Source of the DNA: an uncultured Bacilli bacterium
GTDB lineage: Bacteria; Bacillota_I; Bacilli_A; RFN20; CAG-826
Length of the DNA stretch: 38,705 bases
Direction of reading: 5' to 3'
Assembly: GCA_944375905.1 (NCBI GenBank)
Contig: CALWAS010000016.1
Location: 1 to 38,705, forward strand
The notes beneath the pieces were generated by a model. The model searched no databases. It was not told where the DNA came from and saw only the letters and a program-made list of their open reading frames with translations. Position numbers and translations under genes: made by a program. Position 1 is the stretch's first letter. Each line of letters starts with the position of its first letter. Positions 5,333 to 20,817 of this stretch are shown here, piece by piece.

Positions 5333-5849
5333 GGAAAAGGAAGCCCGCGCCTATATCAAGGACCGGGTCAATTCCACTCTCTATTTCCTTTTCGTCGTCC
5401 TTATCGGGATCTTGGTCCTCGTGGGTCTAGGGATGTCGCTTTATGCCTTCCTTTTCCCCTATCTAAACGGGAACAACGATGTTCCGGGGCTCGCTTCCCT
5501 CATCCTGGCTTCGCTTTCTTTTGCCCTCTATCTCTCTTTCCTTAGCCTCGAGTTCATCTATAAGCGGGGGAGAACGCCTTTCATCCACATCGCGATGTGG
5601 ACGATTCGCCTCCTTTCGCTTCTTTTCCTCCTCGCTTCCTCTTTGGGCCTGATCGCCTCGTCTTTTCTCATGGACGAAGGAAGCCATTCGTTCCTATTTA
5701 GCGTCTCCCTCGTCCTCGCGGTCCTTCTTTTCCTTTTCTCCCTCGTCGATCTCTACTTCCTCCTTTGGAGGCTCAACAACAAGGAAAGGTACCTCTTCCC
5801 GGGAAAGGGAGAGGAAGAGAAAGGCAACGTTCCCGTCAAAAGGAAATAG
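5313..5849 (+). CDS. Four-TM membrane protein of unknown function
   Basis: A 178-residue protein with a charged, Ser/Lys-rich N-terminus, four clear hydrophobic helices (about 22-50, 60-85, 100-120 and 130-155) and a basic cytosolic tail ending VPVKRK. I recognise no family. Its ATG lies inside the last codons of the exporter gene (20-nt overlap, different frame), so expression is probably translationally coupled to it. It ends 8 nt before the convergent uridine kinase gene, with no terminator between. A role linked to the exporter is inferred from position only. Confidence 0.7.
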   Translation: MPSSSSKEKEARAYIKDRVNSTLYFLFVVLIGILVLVGLGMSLYAFLFPYLNGNNDVPGLASLILASLSFALYLSFLSLEFIYKRGRTPFIHIAMWTIRLLSLLFLLASSLGLIASSFLMDEGSHSFLFSVSLVLAVLLFLFSLVDLYFLLWRLNNKERYLFPGKGEEEKGNVPVKRK

Positions 5850-12690: not shown

Positions 12691-13905
12691 TTAGTCGACG
12701 GTCAATATCTTCTTCACGAGCTCGATCATTTCCTCGTAATCGCGGAGGGATAGGTACTCGCGTTCGCCATGGTGGTTGTAGCTTCCAGTCCCGAGGTTCG
12801 GGGTCGGGCAGCCGAGGAAGGAGAAGGTCGCTCCGTCGGTTCCACCGCGGATCGGGTCCTGCCTCATCTTGATCCCGGCCGCCTCGAAGGCCTTCTTCGC
12901 GTGCTCAAGGGCGCGCGGGTCCTTATCGATGATTTCCTTCATGTTCCGGTAGTCGTCCTTGATATGGACGTCGATCTTGGCCTTCGGGTACACCTCGTTG
13001 AGGGACTTGGCCTTGTTAATGAGCTCTTCCTTCATGGCCTCGAACTTGGCCCGGTCATGCTCGCGGATGAGGTAGCGGGCCTTGAGGGAAGCGCTGTCGC
13101 CCTCGACGGCGATGAGATGGTAGAAGCCTTCGTAGAGCTCGGTCGCCTCCGGACGCCTCGAGATCCCGAGCGAGAGGTCGAGCTGCTCGAGGAGGGAAAT
13201 GGCATTGATGAGCTTGCCCTTGGCTTCGCCCGGATGGATGGCAAGCCCCTCGATTTCCACGTCGGCATGGGCCGCGTTGAAGTTCTCGCATTCGATGAGG
13301 TCGCTATCGGCCCCGTCGATCGTATAGGCGAAGTCGGCCCCGAACTTCTTGCAGTCGAAGTGCTCGGGCCCGCGGCCGATTTCCTCGTCGGGGGTAAATA
13401 AGACCGAGACGGGGTGGTGGGGGACTTTTTCGGCAATCAGTTCCTCGATGGCGTTCATGATGATGGCGATTCCAGCCTTGTCGTCGCCCCCGAGCAAGGT
13501 CGAGCCGTCGGTCGTGACGATGGTGTCGCCTTTATGGGCGGCCAGACGCGGGAAATCGGCGACCTGGATGGAGATTCCGGCCGGGAGTTCGATGTCCTTC
13601 CCGTCGTAGTTCTCGTGGATGATCGGCTTCACGTCCTTGCCCGAGGCTTCTCCGGCGGTATCGACGTGGGAATTGAGTCCGATCCTCGCCCAGCCTTCCT
13701 CGCCGCCTAGATGGGCGTAGAGGCGGCCGTATTGGTCGATTTCCGCGTCCTCGAGCCCAAGGGCGAGGAGTTCCTCCTTGAGAAGGTTCAGGAGGTCGTA
13801 TTCCTTCTCGGCGGAGGGAGTGAGATTGCTCCGCTCGTCGCTCTGGGTATCGATCCTCACGTAGCGGAGGAACTTATCCAACCGCCTTTTGCTTCTTTCT
13901 TCCAT
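12691..13905 (-). CDS. pepT: Peptidase T (tripeptide aminopeptidase)
   Basis: A 404-residue M20-family metallopeptidase that removes the N-terminal residue from tripeptides in the cytosol. Zn ligands and the catalytic set are in place: H80-x-D82 in HVDTA, the bridging Asp141 in GGDDKAG, Glu174/Glu175 in TPDEEIG, and a late His in SYNHHGE. Length matches PepT (about 405-410). The ATG at 13903-13905 is preceded by no Shine-Dalgarno but by AT-rich TTTAGATATATAAGC and a GGGAC-AGA-GTCCC inverted repeat (13921-13933), so the transcript may be leaderless or very short-led. Confidence 0.94.
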   Translation of the reverse strand: MEERSKRRLDKFLRYVRIDTQSDERSNLTPSAEKEYDLLNLLKEELLALGLEDAEIDQYGRLYAHLGGEEGWARIGLNSHVDTAGEASGKDVKPIIHENYDGKDIELPAGISIQVADFPRLAAHKGDTIVTTDGSTLLGGDDKAGIAIIMNAIEELIAEKVPHHPVSVLFTPDEEIGRGPEHFDCKKFGADFAYTIDGADSDLIECENFNAAHADVEIEGLAIHPGEAKGKLINAISLLEQLDLSLGISRRPEATELYEGFYHLIAVEGDSASLKARYLIREHDRAKFEAMKEELINKAKSLNEVYPKAKIDVHIKDDYRNMKEIIDKDPRALEHAKKAFEAAGIKMRQDPIRGGTDGATFSFLGCPTPNLGTGSYNHHGEREYLSLRDYEEMIELVKKILTVD

Positions 13906-14061: not shown

Positions 14062-14090
14062 TTGATTCTCTCTCTCTCTCTCTCTATGCT
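14062..14090 (+). promoter_or_regulatory. Promoter with TC-repeat spacer, candidate phase-variation switch
   Basis: TTGATT (14062-14067) and TATGCT (14085-14090) are separated by exactly 17 nt, and that spacer is a pure CT dinucleotide repeat. Slippage by one unit would change spacing to 15 or 19 nt and shut the promoter off. It drives the first surface protein after a ~150-nt leader. Confidence 0.6.
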
Positions 14091-14160
14091 TAACGCGTGC
14101 GGGAATCCTGGGAAGAGAAAAAAGCGACAGGCCTCCGAAGCGTGAGTTCTCGGTCGTTTA

Positions 14161-14180
14161 GGGCCTAATGGCCCCTTTTT
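14161..14180 (+). terminator. Attenuator-like hairpin in the leader of surface protein 1
   Basis: GGGCC-TAAT-GGCCC followed by CTTTTT, located between the TC-repeat promoter and the ATG at 14245. A second hairpin CGCGCC-CCGTCT-GGCGCG (14212-14229) ends just before the AGAAGGAG ribosome site. Confidence 0.5.
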
Positions 14181-14244
14181 CGCTTTCTCTCCTTCGTTCT
14201 TCCCGACCGGACGCGCCCCGTCTGGCGCGGAAAGAAGGAGTTCT

Positions 14245-15969
14245 ATGTATTCAAAGCTGAAACGTCCTCTACTCATGAGCCTAGGCGCAGTGGCGGCCTT
14301 CGGACTTATTGCTGGCACCGCAACGGCACTTGGTGGAAAGACCAGTAAGGTTAATGCGACAAGCGCTACCACTATTGACGATGTCTTTACTGTGACATCT
14401 TTTAAACCAGCGAAAGGTGATTCCTATGGCTCGACCCCGAATCTAGTTGGAGAAAGCGGCGCCGTCTATAAAGCCTATTCCAGATATGGCGATAGCGGGG
14501 ATATTCAGCTTCGTTCAAGTGACTCCCAAAGCGGAATTGTAGTGACGTCCTCCTCTTCAAAACTTGTCGGCATTAGCGTTGAATGGTCGTCCACTGTTAA
14601 GGACACCTGGGAACTTTCGGTCTATTTGTCATCTGACCCTTTTGTAGATACGAATGATTTGTATCAAGGGGGGACCGCTGACTACACATTAAATAAGTCA
14701 ACTACTTCGATTTCGTTTGATGCCGCCAGCCAGCAATCGTATGTTGGCGTACGGTCACGTAGTGGCACGATTTATCTAAAGTCCATCACGTTCACTTGGG
14801 CAGTTCAAGCTGTCGGAACGCTTGAATCGATCGAAGTCGACACGACAAACGCCAAGCTCGATTATTATGTTGGTGATTCTTTAGACTGGAGCGGCCTTTC
14901 AATAACGGCTTTCGATACTGAAGGAAGTCAAGTGCCACTGACCGCATTCTCAAATGGAGTTTCGATTGACCCCGCACATGGAACAGCCGCAACCGAGGTT
15001 GGCGAATTCGATGCCACTGTTTCTTATACTAGCGGAGACATAACGAAAAACTCGACCTTCAAATATAGGGTCACGGCTCCAACTTCGACCGCTTTTTACA
15101 AAGTTGATCCAAGTTCAATTAAAAACATTCTTCTTGGAAGCAAAGGCATTTTAGCCTACGGCACCATGGTTTCGGGAGCCTTGGAGGGAAAGATTCTCAG
15201 CGCTGTAAGTCTTGAACTTGATGGGGAATCCGATGTTAGCTCTCTGGACGAAATTACATTGTTCGAAAATAGCGGTGCAGCGCCTTTCACCATTGGCCTT
15301 GGATACCTTGACGAAACATTGTCCTTCTACTTTGAAAACGATTATCAGCCTGGTTATTTGAATGCGGCCGGAGAAAAGAACTTGTCAATCGTTTCGGAAA
15401 GAACTTCAAATTTCCGCGACACTACTTCTTTCGCCGTTTCTGCCAGTGCGGATACAGAAGGTGCCTTGAGCATTAAAAGTAACACCACGACTCCGTACTA
15501 TCTCAGATATAACTCAAGCTCTCCGAGGTTTACTTTGTATAAGTCTGGACAGAACGACCCCTTCATGTTTGTGTCCACTCCAACTGCGGACGAACAAGTT
15601 CATGAGTTGGCTGCTTATATCATGGCTTGGGAGGACACCAATCAGTGTGTAACACACTACTGGACTGCAAAAGACGCCTTCTTCAATAACCTAGACGAAA
15701 ATGCGAAGGAGATTTTCAAAAACACGAATGGTGATGCTTCTGAAGAAGCTGATATCGTCGCGCAAGCCAAGGCTCGTTATGACGCCTGGGCCATTAACCG
15801 CGGAGACTATGAAACTCGCTTCGATGGCAATGCCCCAAGCGGCGCAGCCATTGTGAAGGACGATGCCAATGACGATATGGGCATCTATGTTGGCGCCCTT
15901 GCAATCGTTTTGGTGGGCCTTGGCGTTGGAAGCGCTGTCATCATCGAAAAACGTAAATCCCGCATTTGA
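14245..15969 (+). CDS. Surface protein 1: signal peptide, Ig-like domain, C-terminal membrane anchor
   Basis: A 574-residue secreted protein. A Sec signal (basic MYSKLKRP then a hydrophobic run) is followed by a beta-rich, Ser/Thr-rich domain (about 40-190) and a bacterial Ig-like domain (about 195-280; SIEVDTTNAKLDYYVGDSLD...DWSGLSITAF type). A middle beta-rich region and a helical module (about 450-525) follow; the module has one Cys (NQCVTHYW) and ends in AKARYDAWA. The last 30 residues are a membrane helix from MGIYVGALAIVLVG to a KRKSRI stop-transfer tail. No LPxTG. AGAAGGAG precedes the ATG. It is the first of three paralogues; ligand unknown. Lower GC than housekeeping neighbours. Confidence 0.85.
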   Translation: MYSKLKRPLLMSLGAVAAFGLIAGTATALGGKTSKVNATSATTIDDVFTVTSFKPAKGDSYGSTPNLVGESGAVYKAYSRYGDSGDIQLRSSDSQSGIVVTSSSSKLVGISVEWSSTVKDTWELSVYLSSDPFVDTNDLYQGGTADYTLNKSTTSISFDAASQQSYVGVRSRSGTIYLKSITFTWAVQAVGTLESIEVDTTNAKLDYYVGDSLDWSGLSITAFDTEGSQVPLTAFSNGVSIDPAHGTAATEVGEFDATVSYTSGDITKNSTFKYRVTAPTSTAFYKVDPSSIKNILLGSKGILAYGTMVSGALEGKILSAVSLELDGESDVSSLDEITLFENSGAAPFTIGLGYLDETLSFYFENDYQPGYLNAAGEKNLSIVSERTSNFRDTTSFAVSASADTEGALSIKSNTTTPYYLRYNSSSPRFTLYKSGQNDPFMFVSTPTADEQVHELAAYIMAWEDTNQCVTHYWTAKDAFFNNLDENAKEIFKNTNGDASEEADIVAQAKARYDAWAINRGDYETRFDGNAPSGAAIVKDDANDDMGIYVGALAIVLVGLGVGSAVIIEKRKSRI

Positions 15970-16240: not shown

Positions 16241-18859
16241 ATGAAGAAAGCGATTCTTGGGGGCATTGGCTTTGCTCTGTTTGGATTGGCCCTTTCTGGC
16301 ATTTATATTGGCAACGACGCCATCCAAGTTTCAGCCGCCGATGAATATTCGGTTACGTTCGATTGTACTAATGAAACTACATTTACTTCGATTAATAACG
16401 GTTTGACGAGCACAAGTCAGGGAGTCAAAGTTGATTTTTTGAAAAGCTCTTCACCCAATGCCCCCGTTTATAACAAAAAGAGCGCTGAAATCCGTATGTA
16501 TTCAGGCGGAAGCGTGCTCAATATTTCCTCACTGGATGGGTTAGAAATTTCCTCTGTTAGCTTCGTTGGAAGTCAAGACAGCGGAAGCAATAAAATTTCT
16601 TGGGCGAATAATTTTTCATGCAGCAATAACGACTTCGTTAAGGATTCTTCTGGCAAAAAATGGACATGTGAATCGGGGAGCTATTCGTCAATTTCTTTTT
16701 CAACGTCTGGTTCTTCCGGGCACCTCAAATTCCATGAAATAACCGTTAATCTAATGGATCCTTCAAGCGGCGCCGCAATTTCATCATTTGAAGCTACTAC
16801 TTCCGATGACGCCTACGCTTCTGGCCAGACGCTTTCTGAAGAAGACATAATTGTAACTGGCGAAAAAGTTGATGGCAGTGAAATTGAAAGGTCAGACTAT
16901 TCTCTTGAAATCGGTTATCTGGAGGAAGGCGAATTTCTCCCCGAAGATCAATTTGTGTGGGGCGAAACCCCGCTTGATCCTATTTACAATAATGTTAGGG
17001 TAACTTCGCTCCTCCCGACGACGGAAGGCGGCAGCGAATTCTTCGTCGTCGACGTTCCCGTTAATGTCGTCGAACCTGAGTCGATCGAAATCCATGGCGA
17101 CATGACCATAAAGGATTACACGTCGCTATCTACTCAGTGGGATTTTACAGGCCTTAGTGTCGTTGCTATGCCCGGTGAAATTGATGTAACCGATGAAGCA
17201 GAATTCCTTGGCGATCCGGAAGTTCCCTCTGTCGGCACCGATAATTTACTTGTTTATGCTTTCTTCGGCGATTTCGATGCTCAAATTGAAATCGATGGAA
17301 TTGTCGTAAAGGAGCTTTTGAAGGTAAGGGAATCCTTCGAAATGACATTTGCTAGCCTCGCAACGCAGAGCACAAGCGAGGCAACATGGGCCGATTCCAC
17401 AGGAAACATCAATGTCGAGTGGCTTAAAAATGGCGGGAGCGCGATTGCTGATTACGATGAAATTCGTTTTTATGCGAAGCATACAATGAAATTCACTTCA
17501 CAAAGCGGATATGAGTTGGAATATATCTCGCTCGATCTTGCGAGCAGCAACAATGACTATGCCAACGGCATTAACTACAATGGCTCTGAACTTGACGGCT
17601 CTTTAGGGAAGGATGACGTGAGGGTCTATCCTAACGATGAAGGATTGATTTCTCTTGAAGCTAAAGAACAAGTTAGATTCGATAAAATCACCGTTTATTA
17701 CTTCCACTACGAAGAGAAAATTTTCTATGATCGTATTGAGGTAACAAAGCTGCCGACGAAGACGGCTTTCGTTGTCGGTGACACGTTTGATTGGAGCGGA
17801 ATCGAGGTCACTGCCTTTGGGAGCGGCGCAGAGAAGGTCTATTCGGAAAGTGACCTGGTTATCGACCCGGCTGATGGAACGAAAATCGATGAATCTTTCA
17901 TAGGTGAAGGAAAGACCGCGACGGTGAAACTTGCTGACTATGGTGATGAGCTATCCACCACGTTCGATTATTCGGTTTCTGAGCCTAGCTACATAACTTT
18001 CAATGCGATAGATGACGAGAGTGAGCTCATGATTGGAGACCATGTCGTCTTTTTGGAACCTGATGGCGAATACTACACGATGCAGTATGACTCCGAATCT
18101 AATAGGCTTCCAGGGACTAGTAATACTGGTTCTATGGTCTCTGACAGCGGTTTGACCCTAATGGAGCCGTTAAACGGAGCGCCGTTTGTCGTTTCCGCCG
18201 GGTCGGAAGTTGGCACGCTCTCTTTCTACTGTGAAGGCGAGGGATATCTGGCTTTAGGCGGAAAAGGGAAGATTTCCTTTACCGATATGCCGAACGAGTC
18301 TTCCTCTTGGGTACTGATGCCAAAAGAAGACTCCGACAAGTTTGAAGCCTTCGAAATGGCGCCTGTTTCAGATTCCGATTGGCGCCTGCAGTGGAATGAC
18401 AACGGCCATTATCTTGCTTCTTATGAGAATACGCAAACGAATGTCTCGATTGCCAAACTCGATGCAACGCCGAATGAACAGATTGCGACTTTTGCCGATT
18501 ACATGAATTCTTTCAACCTTCCTGAAGGCGAAAATACATGCGGAAAATACTTCCCAATTGCCAAGGATGTATATCTGAATCGTTTAAGCGACGAGGCCAA
18601 ATCCCTTTGGTTGGACATTGACGTGGCTGAAGCTGCTGAAACCGATCTTGGCCAAGCCAAGCTTCGTTATGAAGCCTGGGCCCGAGCCCTTGGCAAAAAT
18701 CCCTACGATGAGATTTCCTCTAGTGGTGCCGCGCTTGTTCCTGACCAGGGGAATGATGACGTTGTCATCTACGCTCTTGCTGCGTCTGTTGCTCTTCTAT
18801 CCATCGGCGGGGCAGCCTTAGCCGTCTCTAACCGCAGGAGAAAGGGAACACATATCTAA
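16241..18859 (+). CDS. Surface protein 2: largest paralogue, Ig-like domains, C-terminal anchor
   Basis: An 872-residue secreted protein with a signal peptide (MKKAILGGIGFALFGLALSG...) and a beta-rich N-terminal domain. A second similar beta-rich domain lies at about 370-490. A clear Ig-like domain follows at about 500-585 (RIEVTKLPTKTAFVVGDTFD followed by WSGIEVTAF, the same pattern as in proteins 1 and 3). The helical module (FADYMNSFNLPEGENTCGKY..., one Cys, LSDEAKSLW, ending AKLRYEAWA) is at about 750-810. The C-terminal helix VIYALAASVALLSIGGAALA has the basic tail NRRRKGTHI. No sortase motif. Adhesion or glycan binding is plausible but unproven. Confidence 0.85.
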   Translation: MKKAILGGIGFALFGLALSGIYIGNDAIQVSAADEYSVTFDCTNETTFTSINNGLTSTSQGVKVDFLKSSSPNAPVYNKKSAEIRMYSGGSVLNISSLDGLEISSVSFVGSQDSGSNKISWANNFSCSNNDFVKDSSGKKWTCESGSYSSISFSTSGSSGHLKFHEITVNLMDPSSGAAISSFEATTSDDAYASGQTLSEEDIIVTGEKVDGSEIERSDYSLEIGYLEEGEFLPEDQFVWGETPLDPIYNNVRVTSLLPTTEGGSEFFVVDVPVNVVEPESIEIHGDMTIKDYTSLSTQWDFTGLSVVAMPGEIDVTDEAEFLGDPEVPSVGTDNLLVYAFFGDFDAQIEIDGIVVKELLKVRESFEMTFASLATQSTSEATWADSTGNINVEWLKNGGSAIADYDEIRFYAKHTMKFTSQSGYELEYISLDLASSNNDYANGINYNGSELDGSLGKDDVRVYPNDEGLISLEAKEQVRFDKITVYYFHYEEKIFYDRIEVTKLPTKTAFVVGDTFDWSGIEVTAFGSGAEKVYSESDLVIDPADGTKIDESFIGEGKTATVKLADYGDELSTTFDYSVSEPSYITFNAIDDESELMIGDHVVFLEPDGEYYTMQYDSESNRLPGTSNTGSMVSDSGLTLMEPLNGAPFVVSAGSEVGTLSFYCEGEGYLALGGKGKISFTDMPNESSSWVLMPKEDSDKFEAFEMAPVSDSDWRLQWNDNGHYLASYENTQTNVSIAKLDATPNEQIATFADYMNSFNLPEGENTCGKYFPIAKDVYLNRLSDEAKSLWLDIDVAEAAETDLGQAKLRYEAWARALGKNPYDEISSSGAALVPDQGNDDVVIYALAASVALLSIGGAALAVSNRRRKGTHI

Positions 18860-19089: not shown

Positions 19090-20817
19090 ATGAATGCAAA
19101 AAGCAAGCTCTTCCTAGGAGCAGCCATTCTAGGAATAGCGACTGCCGGCGCGGCGTTATCCATTGGGGAAACGGGCGCGGTTAAGGCCGATGCAGCCGGA
19201 GCCGTGTCGTACACCTACGATTTTGTTACAAATTTTGGAAGCTATGCTAGCAGCTGGAGTACCAGTTATGGCGAGCACATTGTCTCGTCTACTGTTTTAG
19301 GCAATGATCTACCTGCGGCAGAAGTTAAATTTGGGTCTGCAAATAAGCAGTCTAGCAATACTGCCATTGCGGATCGCCCTGTTTCTAAAATATCCGATAA
19401 CACTTTTACTCTTGACCCTGACACTGATTTACAGATTGCTTCTTTCACCCTCGTTTGCGCTCAGTGGAAAGAATTATCTGCAAGTTTCACGGTGTCAACT
19501 GCTACAGGGAAGGTTTTGACCCCGTCTTCATCCGATTCTTCTGCAATATTTGAAGAATCAGGAATTACTTGGGCTGTTGACGACATCGGTGTTCAATCGA
19601 TCAATTTTAACCAGACTAAGAACAATCAGGTTGGGTATTCAAAGATTGTTGTTTCGCTTGAGCCGTTAGAAACCATTGATTCTCTTGATCACATTTCTGT
19701 TTCTGCTCTTCCTACTAAAAATGAATACCAAGTCGGTGAAGCTTTCGATCCTTCCGGCATTTCTGTAGTTGGATATTCTGGAGCTGATGAAGAAAGCTCG
19801 GCATCATTTGTTCTTTCTGACCTCACATACAATCCTGCTGCCGGCTATGTCTTTGGCGAAGAAGATATCGGAAACAAGGAAATAGAAGTTACCGCCTCAT
19901 ACAATGGCCAAGAATATAAGACGACCTTTGATGTAAATGTAATTAGCGGCCCTGCGATTTCTCTTTTCTTTGGAAACGATGCCGGTCACGCCTTTCCTGG
20001 CACCGCTGACTATGTCTCTTCCTACAATGCATCGCGCGATTTCGAGGGCACTAGGACCAGCCTAATTGCATATGCGACCGGAAAGTATACATTCAAGGTG
20101 TATGACTATGATGATTGCATGACCATCGGGTCTTCCAGCAAATATGCTTCCGGCGTGCGTTTCAAGACCGGCATTCTTGCCGCAAATGGCAATGTTTTGA
20201 TTGAAAGGGTGGATTTACATGCCGCTAGCAATAACAACGGTGGGCATTCCAAACTAACAATTAAAATTGGCGATCAAGAATCCGACCAAATGAGCATTGA
20301 AGGCAATACTGAGCAAATTCTTTCCTTTACTCCTTCCAAAGAGTCCGTCGGCTCAGTTGATATCGTCTTTACTAATATTTACCAATCGATAAACATTTAT
20401 GGTATTGAGGTATGGCTTAAGCCGAGTAGCGATTCCGACGTTACAGCTGCTTATTCGTTCGCTCACGATCTTGAGCTTGTCGATAGCTGCAACAGCGAAG
20501 AATACGCCGCCATACTTGATGCCTACGATAAGTTGAGCCCGGCCCAGAAGAAAATCGCCAATGAAATCCTTCTCGACGACTATATCGATGACATGAACAG
20601 CCGCGAGACGATTGGAATTGGGTCGACCACCGTCCTTGAAAAAATCACTGCTATCGACAGCCGTCAGGCAACCGGCGCGAACGGATCGTTCATTCCCAAT
20701 GAATCGACCGCCGACAACACGCTCTATATTGTCCTTGGTACTGCTCTTGGCGCAGCCGCCCTCGCCATTGCCGCGGCCGTGATCATCAAGAAACGCGAAG
20801 CCAAGGCTAGCAAGTAA
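19090..20817 (+). CDS. Surface protein 3: signal peptide, Ig-like domain, C-terminal anchor
   Basis: A 575-residue secreted protein. Signal peptide MNAKSKLFLGAAILGIATAG, then a beta-rich domain (about 35-190), the Ig-like unit (about 197-285: HISVSALPTKNEYQVGEAFD then PSGISVVGY), and a second beta-rich domain. A C-terminal helical module contains one Cys (LVDSCNSEEY) and LSPAQKKIANE. The final helix TLYIVLGTALGAAALAIAAA has a KKREAKASK tail. GGAGG lies 7 nt before the ATG. It shares domain plan and C-terminal module with surface proteins 1 and 2, indicating a tandem family expansion; no function can be named. Confidence 0.85.
   Translation: MNAKSKLFLGAAILGIATAGAALSIGETGAVKADAAGAVSYTYDFVTNFGSYASSWSTSYGEHIVSSTVLGNDLPAAEVKFGSANKQSSNTAIADRPVSKISDNTFTLDPDTDLQIASFTLVCAQWKELSASFTVSTATGKVLTPSSSDSSAIFEESGITWAVDDIGVQSINFNQTKNNQVGYSKIVVSLEPLETIDSLDHISVSALPTKNEYQVGEAFDPSGISVVGYSGADEESSASFVLSDLTYNPAAGYVFGEEDIGNKEIEVTASYNGQEYKTTFDVNVISGPAISLFFGNDAGHAFPGTADYVSSYNASRDFEGTRTSLIAYATGKYTFKVYDYDDCMTIGSSSKYASGVRFKTGILAANGNVLIERVDLHAASNNNGGHSKLTIKIGDQESDQMSIEGNTEQILSFTPSKESVGSVDIVFTNIYQSINIYGIEVWLKPSSDSDVTAAYSFAHDLELVDSCNSEEYAAILDAYDKLSPAQKKIANEILLDDYIDDMNSRETIGIGSTTVLEKITAIDSRQATGANGSFIPNESTADNTLYIVLGTALGAAALAIAAAVIIKKREAKASK

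What the first reader, a model, noticed from the sequence alone, without database searches (positions are those of the whole stretch)
14062..14090. Exactly 17-nt CT repeat forms the spacer of a surface-protein promoter
A pure CT tract fills the whole gap between TTGATT and TATGCT in front of surface protein 1. Simple-repeat slippage within a -10/-35 spacer is an established phase-variation mechanism in some pathogens (e.g. the TA tract of Haemophilus hif genes). Here the length seen is the optimal one (ON), and one unit lost or gained would give 15 or 19 nt. The two neighbouring paralogues lack the tract, so only one of three proteins would switch.
Basis: partly seen in the sequence, partly recalled or inferred. 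Interest (0 to 1): 0.75.

Follow-up and report, generated by a model that had tools for sequence, protein, structure and literature searches.

The report
Slippery CT-repeat promoter of surface gene
A gut bacterium that seems to lack DNA mismatch repair has a run of nine CT repeats exactly filling the gap in a surface-protein gene's promoter, and dozens of relatives have the same kind of switch-like promoter with differing repeat numbers, so the gene is probably turned up and down by random copying slips.

Summary
Confirmed and generalised. Window 14062-14090 is TTGATT-(CT)9-TATGCT with a 17-nt spacer. It is the only long CT tract in the 1.2-Mb genome and lies upstream of a secreted Big_3 protein (14245-15969). 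In 279 genomes of the order, all 67 CT tracts of 14 nt or more lie in the window's own family. Of these, 54/67 are flanked by TTGnnn and TAnnnT (0.7% at displaced sites, 0/67 on the other strand). Spacers are mostly 15, 17 or 19, with mode 17, and 38/50 first downstream ORFs look secreted or lipoprotein (background 19%). In two same-genus species the orthologous locus keeps the element (spacers 17 and 19) although flanks have diverged. Near-identical copies differ by one CT. MutS domain I is absent from all 12 tract-bearing genomes tested but present in 14/15 of other families without tracts. SSR-spacer phase variation is therefore the best explanation. Not shown: switching within a population, the transcription start, or that 17 nt is ON. 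The mechanism is known (hif, porA, opc, fetA); a lineage-wide CT-spacer set in MutS-less uncultured Bacilli appears undescribed. Side finding: in other members many such promoters carry a CIRCE (HrcA) operator on the -35.

The parts
14062..14067 (+). -35-like hexamer TTGATT
   Evidence: read directly; identical in orthologues G018 and G030; TTGnnn abuts 56 of 67 family CT tracts
14068..14085 (+). (CT)9 tract; bases 14068-14084 are the 17-nt spacer, the last T is the first base of the -10
   Evidence: length 9/9/10 units in the three orthologous loci
14085..14090 (+). -10-like hexamer TATGCT
   Evidence: TATCCT in G018, TATGCT in G030
14091..14244 (+). predicted leader (about 150 nt)
   Evidence: -10 to ATG distance 154 here, 126-161 in ten related leaders
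14161..14180 (+). terminator-like hairpin GGGCC-TAAT-GGCCC then CTTTTT inside the leader; possible attenuator
   Evidence: a T-tailed hairpin about 65-95 nt after the -10 in 10 of 11 related leaders, stronger than most shuffles; no covariation support, whole leader fold z -1.18
14235..14240 (+). Shine-Dalgarno-like AAGGAG
14245..15969 (+). surface protein 1: 574 aa, signal peptide-like N terminus, Big_3 Ig-like domain, C-terminal membrane segment with basic tail
12691..13905 (-). divergent M20-family peptidase (peptidase T-like); synteny anchor next to the tract in G018 and G030
16241..18859 (+). paralogous surface protein 2, no CT tract
19090..20817 (+). surface protein 3, no CT tract

Best explanation
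The element is a sigma-70-type core promoter for surface protein 1 whose spacer is a hypermutable CT microsatellite. Slipped-strand mispairing during replication adds or removes CT units and changes the -35/-10 distance in 2-nt steps (15, 17, 19). The assembled state, 17 nt, is the optimal spacing and so probably the high-expression state; 15 or 19 nt should be low. With no MutS protein to correct 2-nt loops, switching should be frequent and reversible, and populations should be mixed for this one surface protein while its two neighbours are unaffected. The transcript probably passes a terminator-like hairpin, so a second, attenuation-type control may act after the promoter. Shown here: sequence, orthologous conservation with length change, family-wide grammar, link to exported proteins, absence of MutS domain I. 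Inferred: promoter activity, ON/OFF assignment, switching within a population, attenuation.
For: (1) BLAST of the 471-nt region against 60 relatives hit only the promoter element, 31-35 nt, in three same-genus species. Two are the orthologous locus, divergent from the peptidase, with spacers 17 (G018) and 19 (G030); the third (G004) is TTGTTT-17-TACAAT before another exported protein. (2) Unbiased scan of the order: 67 CT tracts of 14 nt or more in 47 of 279 genomes, all in family f1. 54/67 have both hexamers abutting the tract, against 0.7% at displaced sites and 0/67 on the complementary strand; spacers 11:1, 13:3, 15:15, 16:1, 17:24, 19:9, 21:1. (3) First downstream ORF secreted or lipoprotein in 38/50 versus 42/219 background, p = 4e-14. 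(4) Pairs with 118/120 identical flanking bases differ by one CT: tandem paralogues in G122 (9 vs 8) and orthologues G017/G032 (10 vs 11, a tract without a clear -35). (5) MutS_I absent in 12/12 tract-bearing genomes including this one, present in 14/15 genomes of other families without tracts; full-strength MutS_V hits occur in only nine family genera, none with tracts. (6) Same-genus AG tracts inside a C5 DNA methyltransferase ORF show dinucleotide contingency loci elsewhere in the genus.
Against: No within-species or read-level length variation was seen, because only one genome per species was available. The hexamers are weak (8/12). No transcription start is mapped. 29 of 37 genus genomes have no CT tract of 12 nt or more in the scanned phase, so the switch is not universal. 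Spacer differences between species could be slow divergence. Secretion calls are a home-made heuristic. The MutS link is between lineages and not phylogenetically corrected.
Confidence: 0.85

Rival explanations
1. A constitutive promoter whose spacer is a CT repeat for structural reasons (flexibility or a homopurine-homopyrimidine structure), with length held at the optimum and no real switching.
For: Mode at 17 nt across loci; both closest orthologues lie within one unit of 17.
Against: 30 of 54 promoters are not at 17; near-identical copies differ by a unit; tracts occur only in lineages without detectable MutS; tracts in methyltransferase ORFs make no sense as promoter structure.
Confidence: 0.08
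2. Chance microsatellite that grew because mismatch repair is missing, with no selected role.
For: MutS domain I is absent, so microsatellites may expand passively.
Against: Only one such tract in the genome; 81% of family tracts sit exactly between promoter hexamers on one strand only; the element outlives its diverged flanks.
Confidence: 0.02
3. The tract acts by other means, such as spacing an upstream regulator from a different promoter, or in the mRNA leader, rather than as the core-promoter spacer.
For: The leader has a terminator-like hairpin at a conserved position; no transcription start is known; other known repeats act outside the core promoter (nadA, PMC2791445; sabA, PMC4081817).
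Against: Both hexamers abut the tract in most of 67 cases and no other 8/12 promoter match exists upstream of the gene on this strand.
Confidence: 0.05

Closest known systems
Haemophilus influenzae hifA/hifB (TA)9-11 promoter
   Same: dinucleotide repeat proposed to change the -10/-35 spacing of a surface-structure gene (PMC2651432, citing van Ham 1993 and Geluk 1998)
   Different: TA not CT; divergent double promoter; here single-direction, in a different phylum, and one of a family-wide set of similar promoters
Neisseria porA, opc, fetA promoters
   Same: repeat between -10 and -35 tunes expression of an outer-membrane protein (PMC2791445)
   Different: homopolymers, so 1-nt steps; here 2-nt steps
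Helicobacter pylori sabA
   Same: CT tract and promoter-adjacent repeat of an adhesin (PMC4081817)
   Different: the sabA CT tract is in the coding sequence and the promoter repeat is poly-T beside the -35; here CT is the spacer itself
Mollicute surface lipoprotein phase variation (vlp, pMGA; from general knowledge, pMGA also cited in PMC2791445)
   Same: small-genome relatives of Bacilli using repeat length near promoters of surface lipoproteins
   Different: different repeat units and positions; no homology was tested

Membership tests
SSR-spacer phase-variable promoters (hif/porA/opc class) | pure simple repeat lying between -35 and -10 hexamers | tested here: met
SSR-spacer phase-variable promoters (hif/porA/opc class) | repeat number varies, giving spacings around 17 nt | tested here: met
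   between orthologues and paralogues; not within one population
SSR-spacer phase-variable promoters (hif/porA/opc class) | controls a surface or exported product | tested here: met
   signal peptide-like N terminus, Big_3, C-terminal membrane segment; 38/50 across the family
SSR-spacer phase-variable promoters (hif/porA/opc class) | reversible length change in a clonal population with change in expression | not testable with these tools
   no reads, strains or expression data
CIRCE/HrcA-controlled promoters | TTAGCACTC-N9-GAGTGCTAA inverted repeat at the promoter | tested here: not met
   absent at 14062-14090, although present at many relatives' CT promoters
Known Rfam leader or riboswitch | match to a curated RNA family | tested here: not met
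   only tRNAs reach threshold in the window

The most novel reading that the evidence does not exclude
A whole family of uncultured gut and rumen Bacilli, in genera that lost MutS, uses a dispersed set of CT-spacer (in places CTT/AAG-spacer) promoters as contingency loci for exported proteins. In several genera these promoters are fused to a CIRCE-type HrcA operator overlapping the -35, making them stress-gated phase-variable promoters; in the window's subgroup and Ca. Alloenteromonas they are instead followed by an attenuator-like leader.
Probability: 0.5. Interest if true: 0.8.

Novelty: new member of a known kind. Interest (0 to 1): 0.62.

Why it matters
Slippage-driven promoter switching is best known from pathogens. 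Finding it as a recurrent promoter design in commensal, uncultured Bacilli, confined to lineages without detectable MutS, would make phase variation in gut communities readable directly from metagenomic reads (count CT units at named loci), and would link loss of mismatch repair to the spread of contingency loci.

Tried and rejected
Leader RNA as a conserved structure: RNAalifold on 11 leaders gave 4 pairs and no two-sided change, and the window leader folds no better than shuffles (z -1.18). Only the T-tailed hairpin by position is supported, so attenuation stays a suggestion. Rfam gave only tRNAs. CIRCE at the window's own tract was looked for and is absent. Viral contigs: no match to the promoter pattern. 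G002 and G035 encode close peptidase relatives but have an ATPase gene upstream of the peptidase gene and no tract. CTT tracts as a general family feature: the pattern TTGNNN(TCT)5 was found in only 2 of 220 genomes, so the trinucleotide form is uncommon in that exact phase. Papers linking CIRCE with repeat-spacer promoters: none found among five hits for HrcA, CIRCE and phase variation (judged from titles and abstracts).

Full report
Observation. The sequence at 14062-14090 is TTGATT-CTCTCTCTCTCTCTCTC-TATGCT, a pure 17-nt CT spacer with the last T of the ninth CT serving as the first base of the -10. It is unique in the window, the only CT tract of 16 nt or more in the 1.22-Mb genome, and far longer than expected (about 6e-4 per genome). 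The element lies 154 nt upstream of an ORF for a 574-residue protein with a signal peptide-like start, a Big_3 Ig-like domain and a C-terminal membrane segment. Two neighbouring surface-protein genes have no tract.

Is it a promoter? The hexamers match consensus at only 4/6 each, and a consensus scan with a 9/12 cut misses them; it is nevertheless the only 8/12 site on that strand upstream of the gene. Stronger evidence is comparative. Blasting 471 nt around the element against 60 relatives returned three same-genus hits, each only 31-35 nt long and covering the -35, tract and -10. Two are the orthologous position, between a divergent M20 peptidase and an exported protein: G018 TTGATT-17-TATCCT and G030 TTGATT-19-TATGCT. 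The third, G004, is TTGTTT-17-TACAAT upstream of another exported protein. The element is kept while its surroundings have diverged, and its length differs.

Unbiased family test. All CT tracts of at least 14 nt were collected from 279 genomes of the order. There are 67, in 47 genomes and 11 genera, and every one is in the window's own family, which also contains Ca. Alloenteromonas (G094 contig 7 has the length, 150982, of a named A. pullistercoris contig). In 54 of 67 a TTGnnn abuts the left end and a TAnnnT the right end. The same test gives 0 of 67 on the complementary strand and 0.7% at displaced positions. The spacers are odd except one, with 15, 17 and 19 nt making up 48 of 54 and 17 the mode. 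First downstream ORFs look like lipoproteins or secreted proteins in 38 of 50 cases against 42 of 219 neighbouring genes (p = 4e-14); the classifier is a simple hydrophobicity and lipobox rule.

A wider scan of 84,980 species genomes for TTGANT-(CT)n-TAnnnT gave 70 stretches. By record title, 38 are in MAGs named Erysipelotrichaceae, Bacilli, Alloenteromonas, Coprobacillus, Bacillales or Firmicutes, or in contigs whose lengths match genomes of this family, and seven are in gastric Helicobacter.

Does the length change? Two tandem paralogues in G122 share 118 of 120 flanking bases but have 9 and 8 units. G017 and G032 share 118 of 120 flanking bases at another locus but have 10 and 11. One methyltransferase pair has equal lengths. 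Tracts therefore change faster than their flanks. Variation within one species could not be tested.

Why would it be mutable? MutS domain I (PF01624) was found in none of 12 tract-bearing family genomes, including this one, although the control search found it in 11 of 14 reference genomes. It is present in 14 of 15 genomes from other families of the order, which have no tracts. With the ATPase domain (PF00488), hits in a 57-genome family sample are bimodal: about 277-293 bits in nine genera, none with CT tracts, and about 88-144 bits elsewhere, read here as MutS2-type proteins. All 11 tract-bearing genera lack the strong hit. Under a simple hypergeometric count by genus within the family this has p of about 0.02 (own arithmetic; not corrected for phylogeny). 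Loss of mismatch repair is known to destabilise short repeats (general knowledge).

Leader. In the TTGATT-type promoters of this genus and Ca. Alloenteromonas the leader is mostly 126-161 nt long, with a T-tailed hairpin about 65-95 nt after the -10 in 10 of 11 cases, stronger than most shuffles. Covariation is not seen on the available alignment. This suggests, without proving, attenuation downstream of the switch.

Mechanism. The best reading is a sigma-70-type promoter with a slippage-prone spacer: 17 nt high, 15 or 19 nt low, switching reversibly and independently of its two neighbours. Promoter activity, the ON/OFF assignment and population mixing are inferred. The mechanism is established for hif, porA, opc and fetA (PMC2791445; PMC2651432), so this is a new member of a known kind; the lineage-wide use and its confinement to lineages without detectable MutS appear new as far as the searched literature shows.

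Beyond the window. In other genera of the family, and in G027 of this genus, the -35 is preceded by TTAGCACTC-N9-RAGTGC, matching the CIRCE operator of HrcA. An exact search found 74 GCACTC-N9-RAGTGC-TTG sites in 40 of 224 genomes, with one hit for the reversed control. The 16 sites that could be inspected run into CT, CTT or AAG repeats or degenerate versions of them. One HrcA gene per genome, with CIRCE-like repeats (up to 4 mismatches) at its own locus, was found in 12 of 12 genomes. The window's own promoter lacks this operator.

Noticed in passing
L007, L015, L163-L170, L178-L205 and L206-L233 (upstream of the tract; many but not all of these): CIRCE-like operator TTAGCACTC-N9-RAGTGC directly overlapping the -35 TTG of repeat-spacer promoters in several genera; suggests HrcA-controlled phase-variable lipoprotein genes.
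   Followed up: partly
L210, L214, L223, L227, L229, L231, L232 (CTT) and L212, L222, L224 (AAG): Some CIRCE-TTG promoters have trinucleotide repeats instead of CT in the spacer, which would change spacing in 3-nt steps.
   Followed up: partly
L147 5370-5389 (reverse-strand coordinates), L148 5591-5610, L149 3055-3072: AG tract (10, 10, 9 units) inside a C5 DNA methyltransferase ORF in three same-genus species; N- and C-terminal parts are in different frames in all three, so the gene reads as OFF in each assembly.
   Followed up: partly
L146 around 5659-5682 (reverse-strand coordinates): Interrupted AG tract inside a second ORF resembling an N6 adenine methyltransferase (no Pfam hit), also out of frame.
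   Followed up: partly
L011 and L018 (G017, G032): CT10 versus CT11 upstream of an orthologous lipoprotein; the same tract may be coding for a divergent ORF on the other strand.
   Followed up: partly
window 14161-14180 and leaders in alignment A1: Terminator-like hairpin at a conserved position between promoter and start codon, possibly a new attenuator leader shared with Ca. Alloenteromonas.
   Followed up: partly
L079, L089, L100, L110, L112, L124, L127: Gastric Helicobacter species have TTGACT-(CT)n-TAAAAT-type promoters, four of the seven upstream of the same 128-aa protein (MFIQDLSVEQQQ...), spacers 15 to 21 nt.
   Followed up: no
L097, L101 (Spirochaetia MAG RGIG3334): TTGACT-(CT)n-TATGAT promoters (15 and 17 nt) before two poly-glycine lipoproteins.
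   Followed up: no
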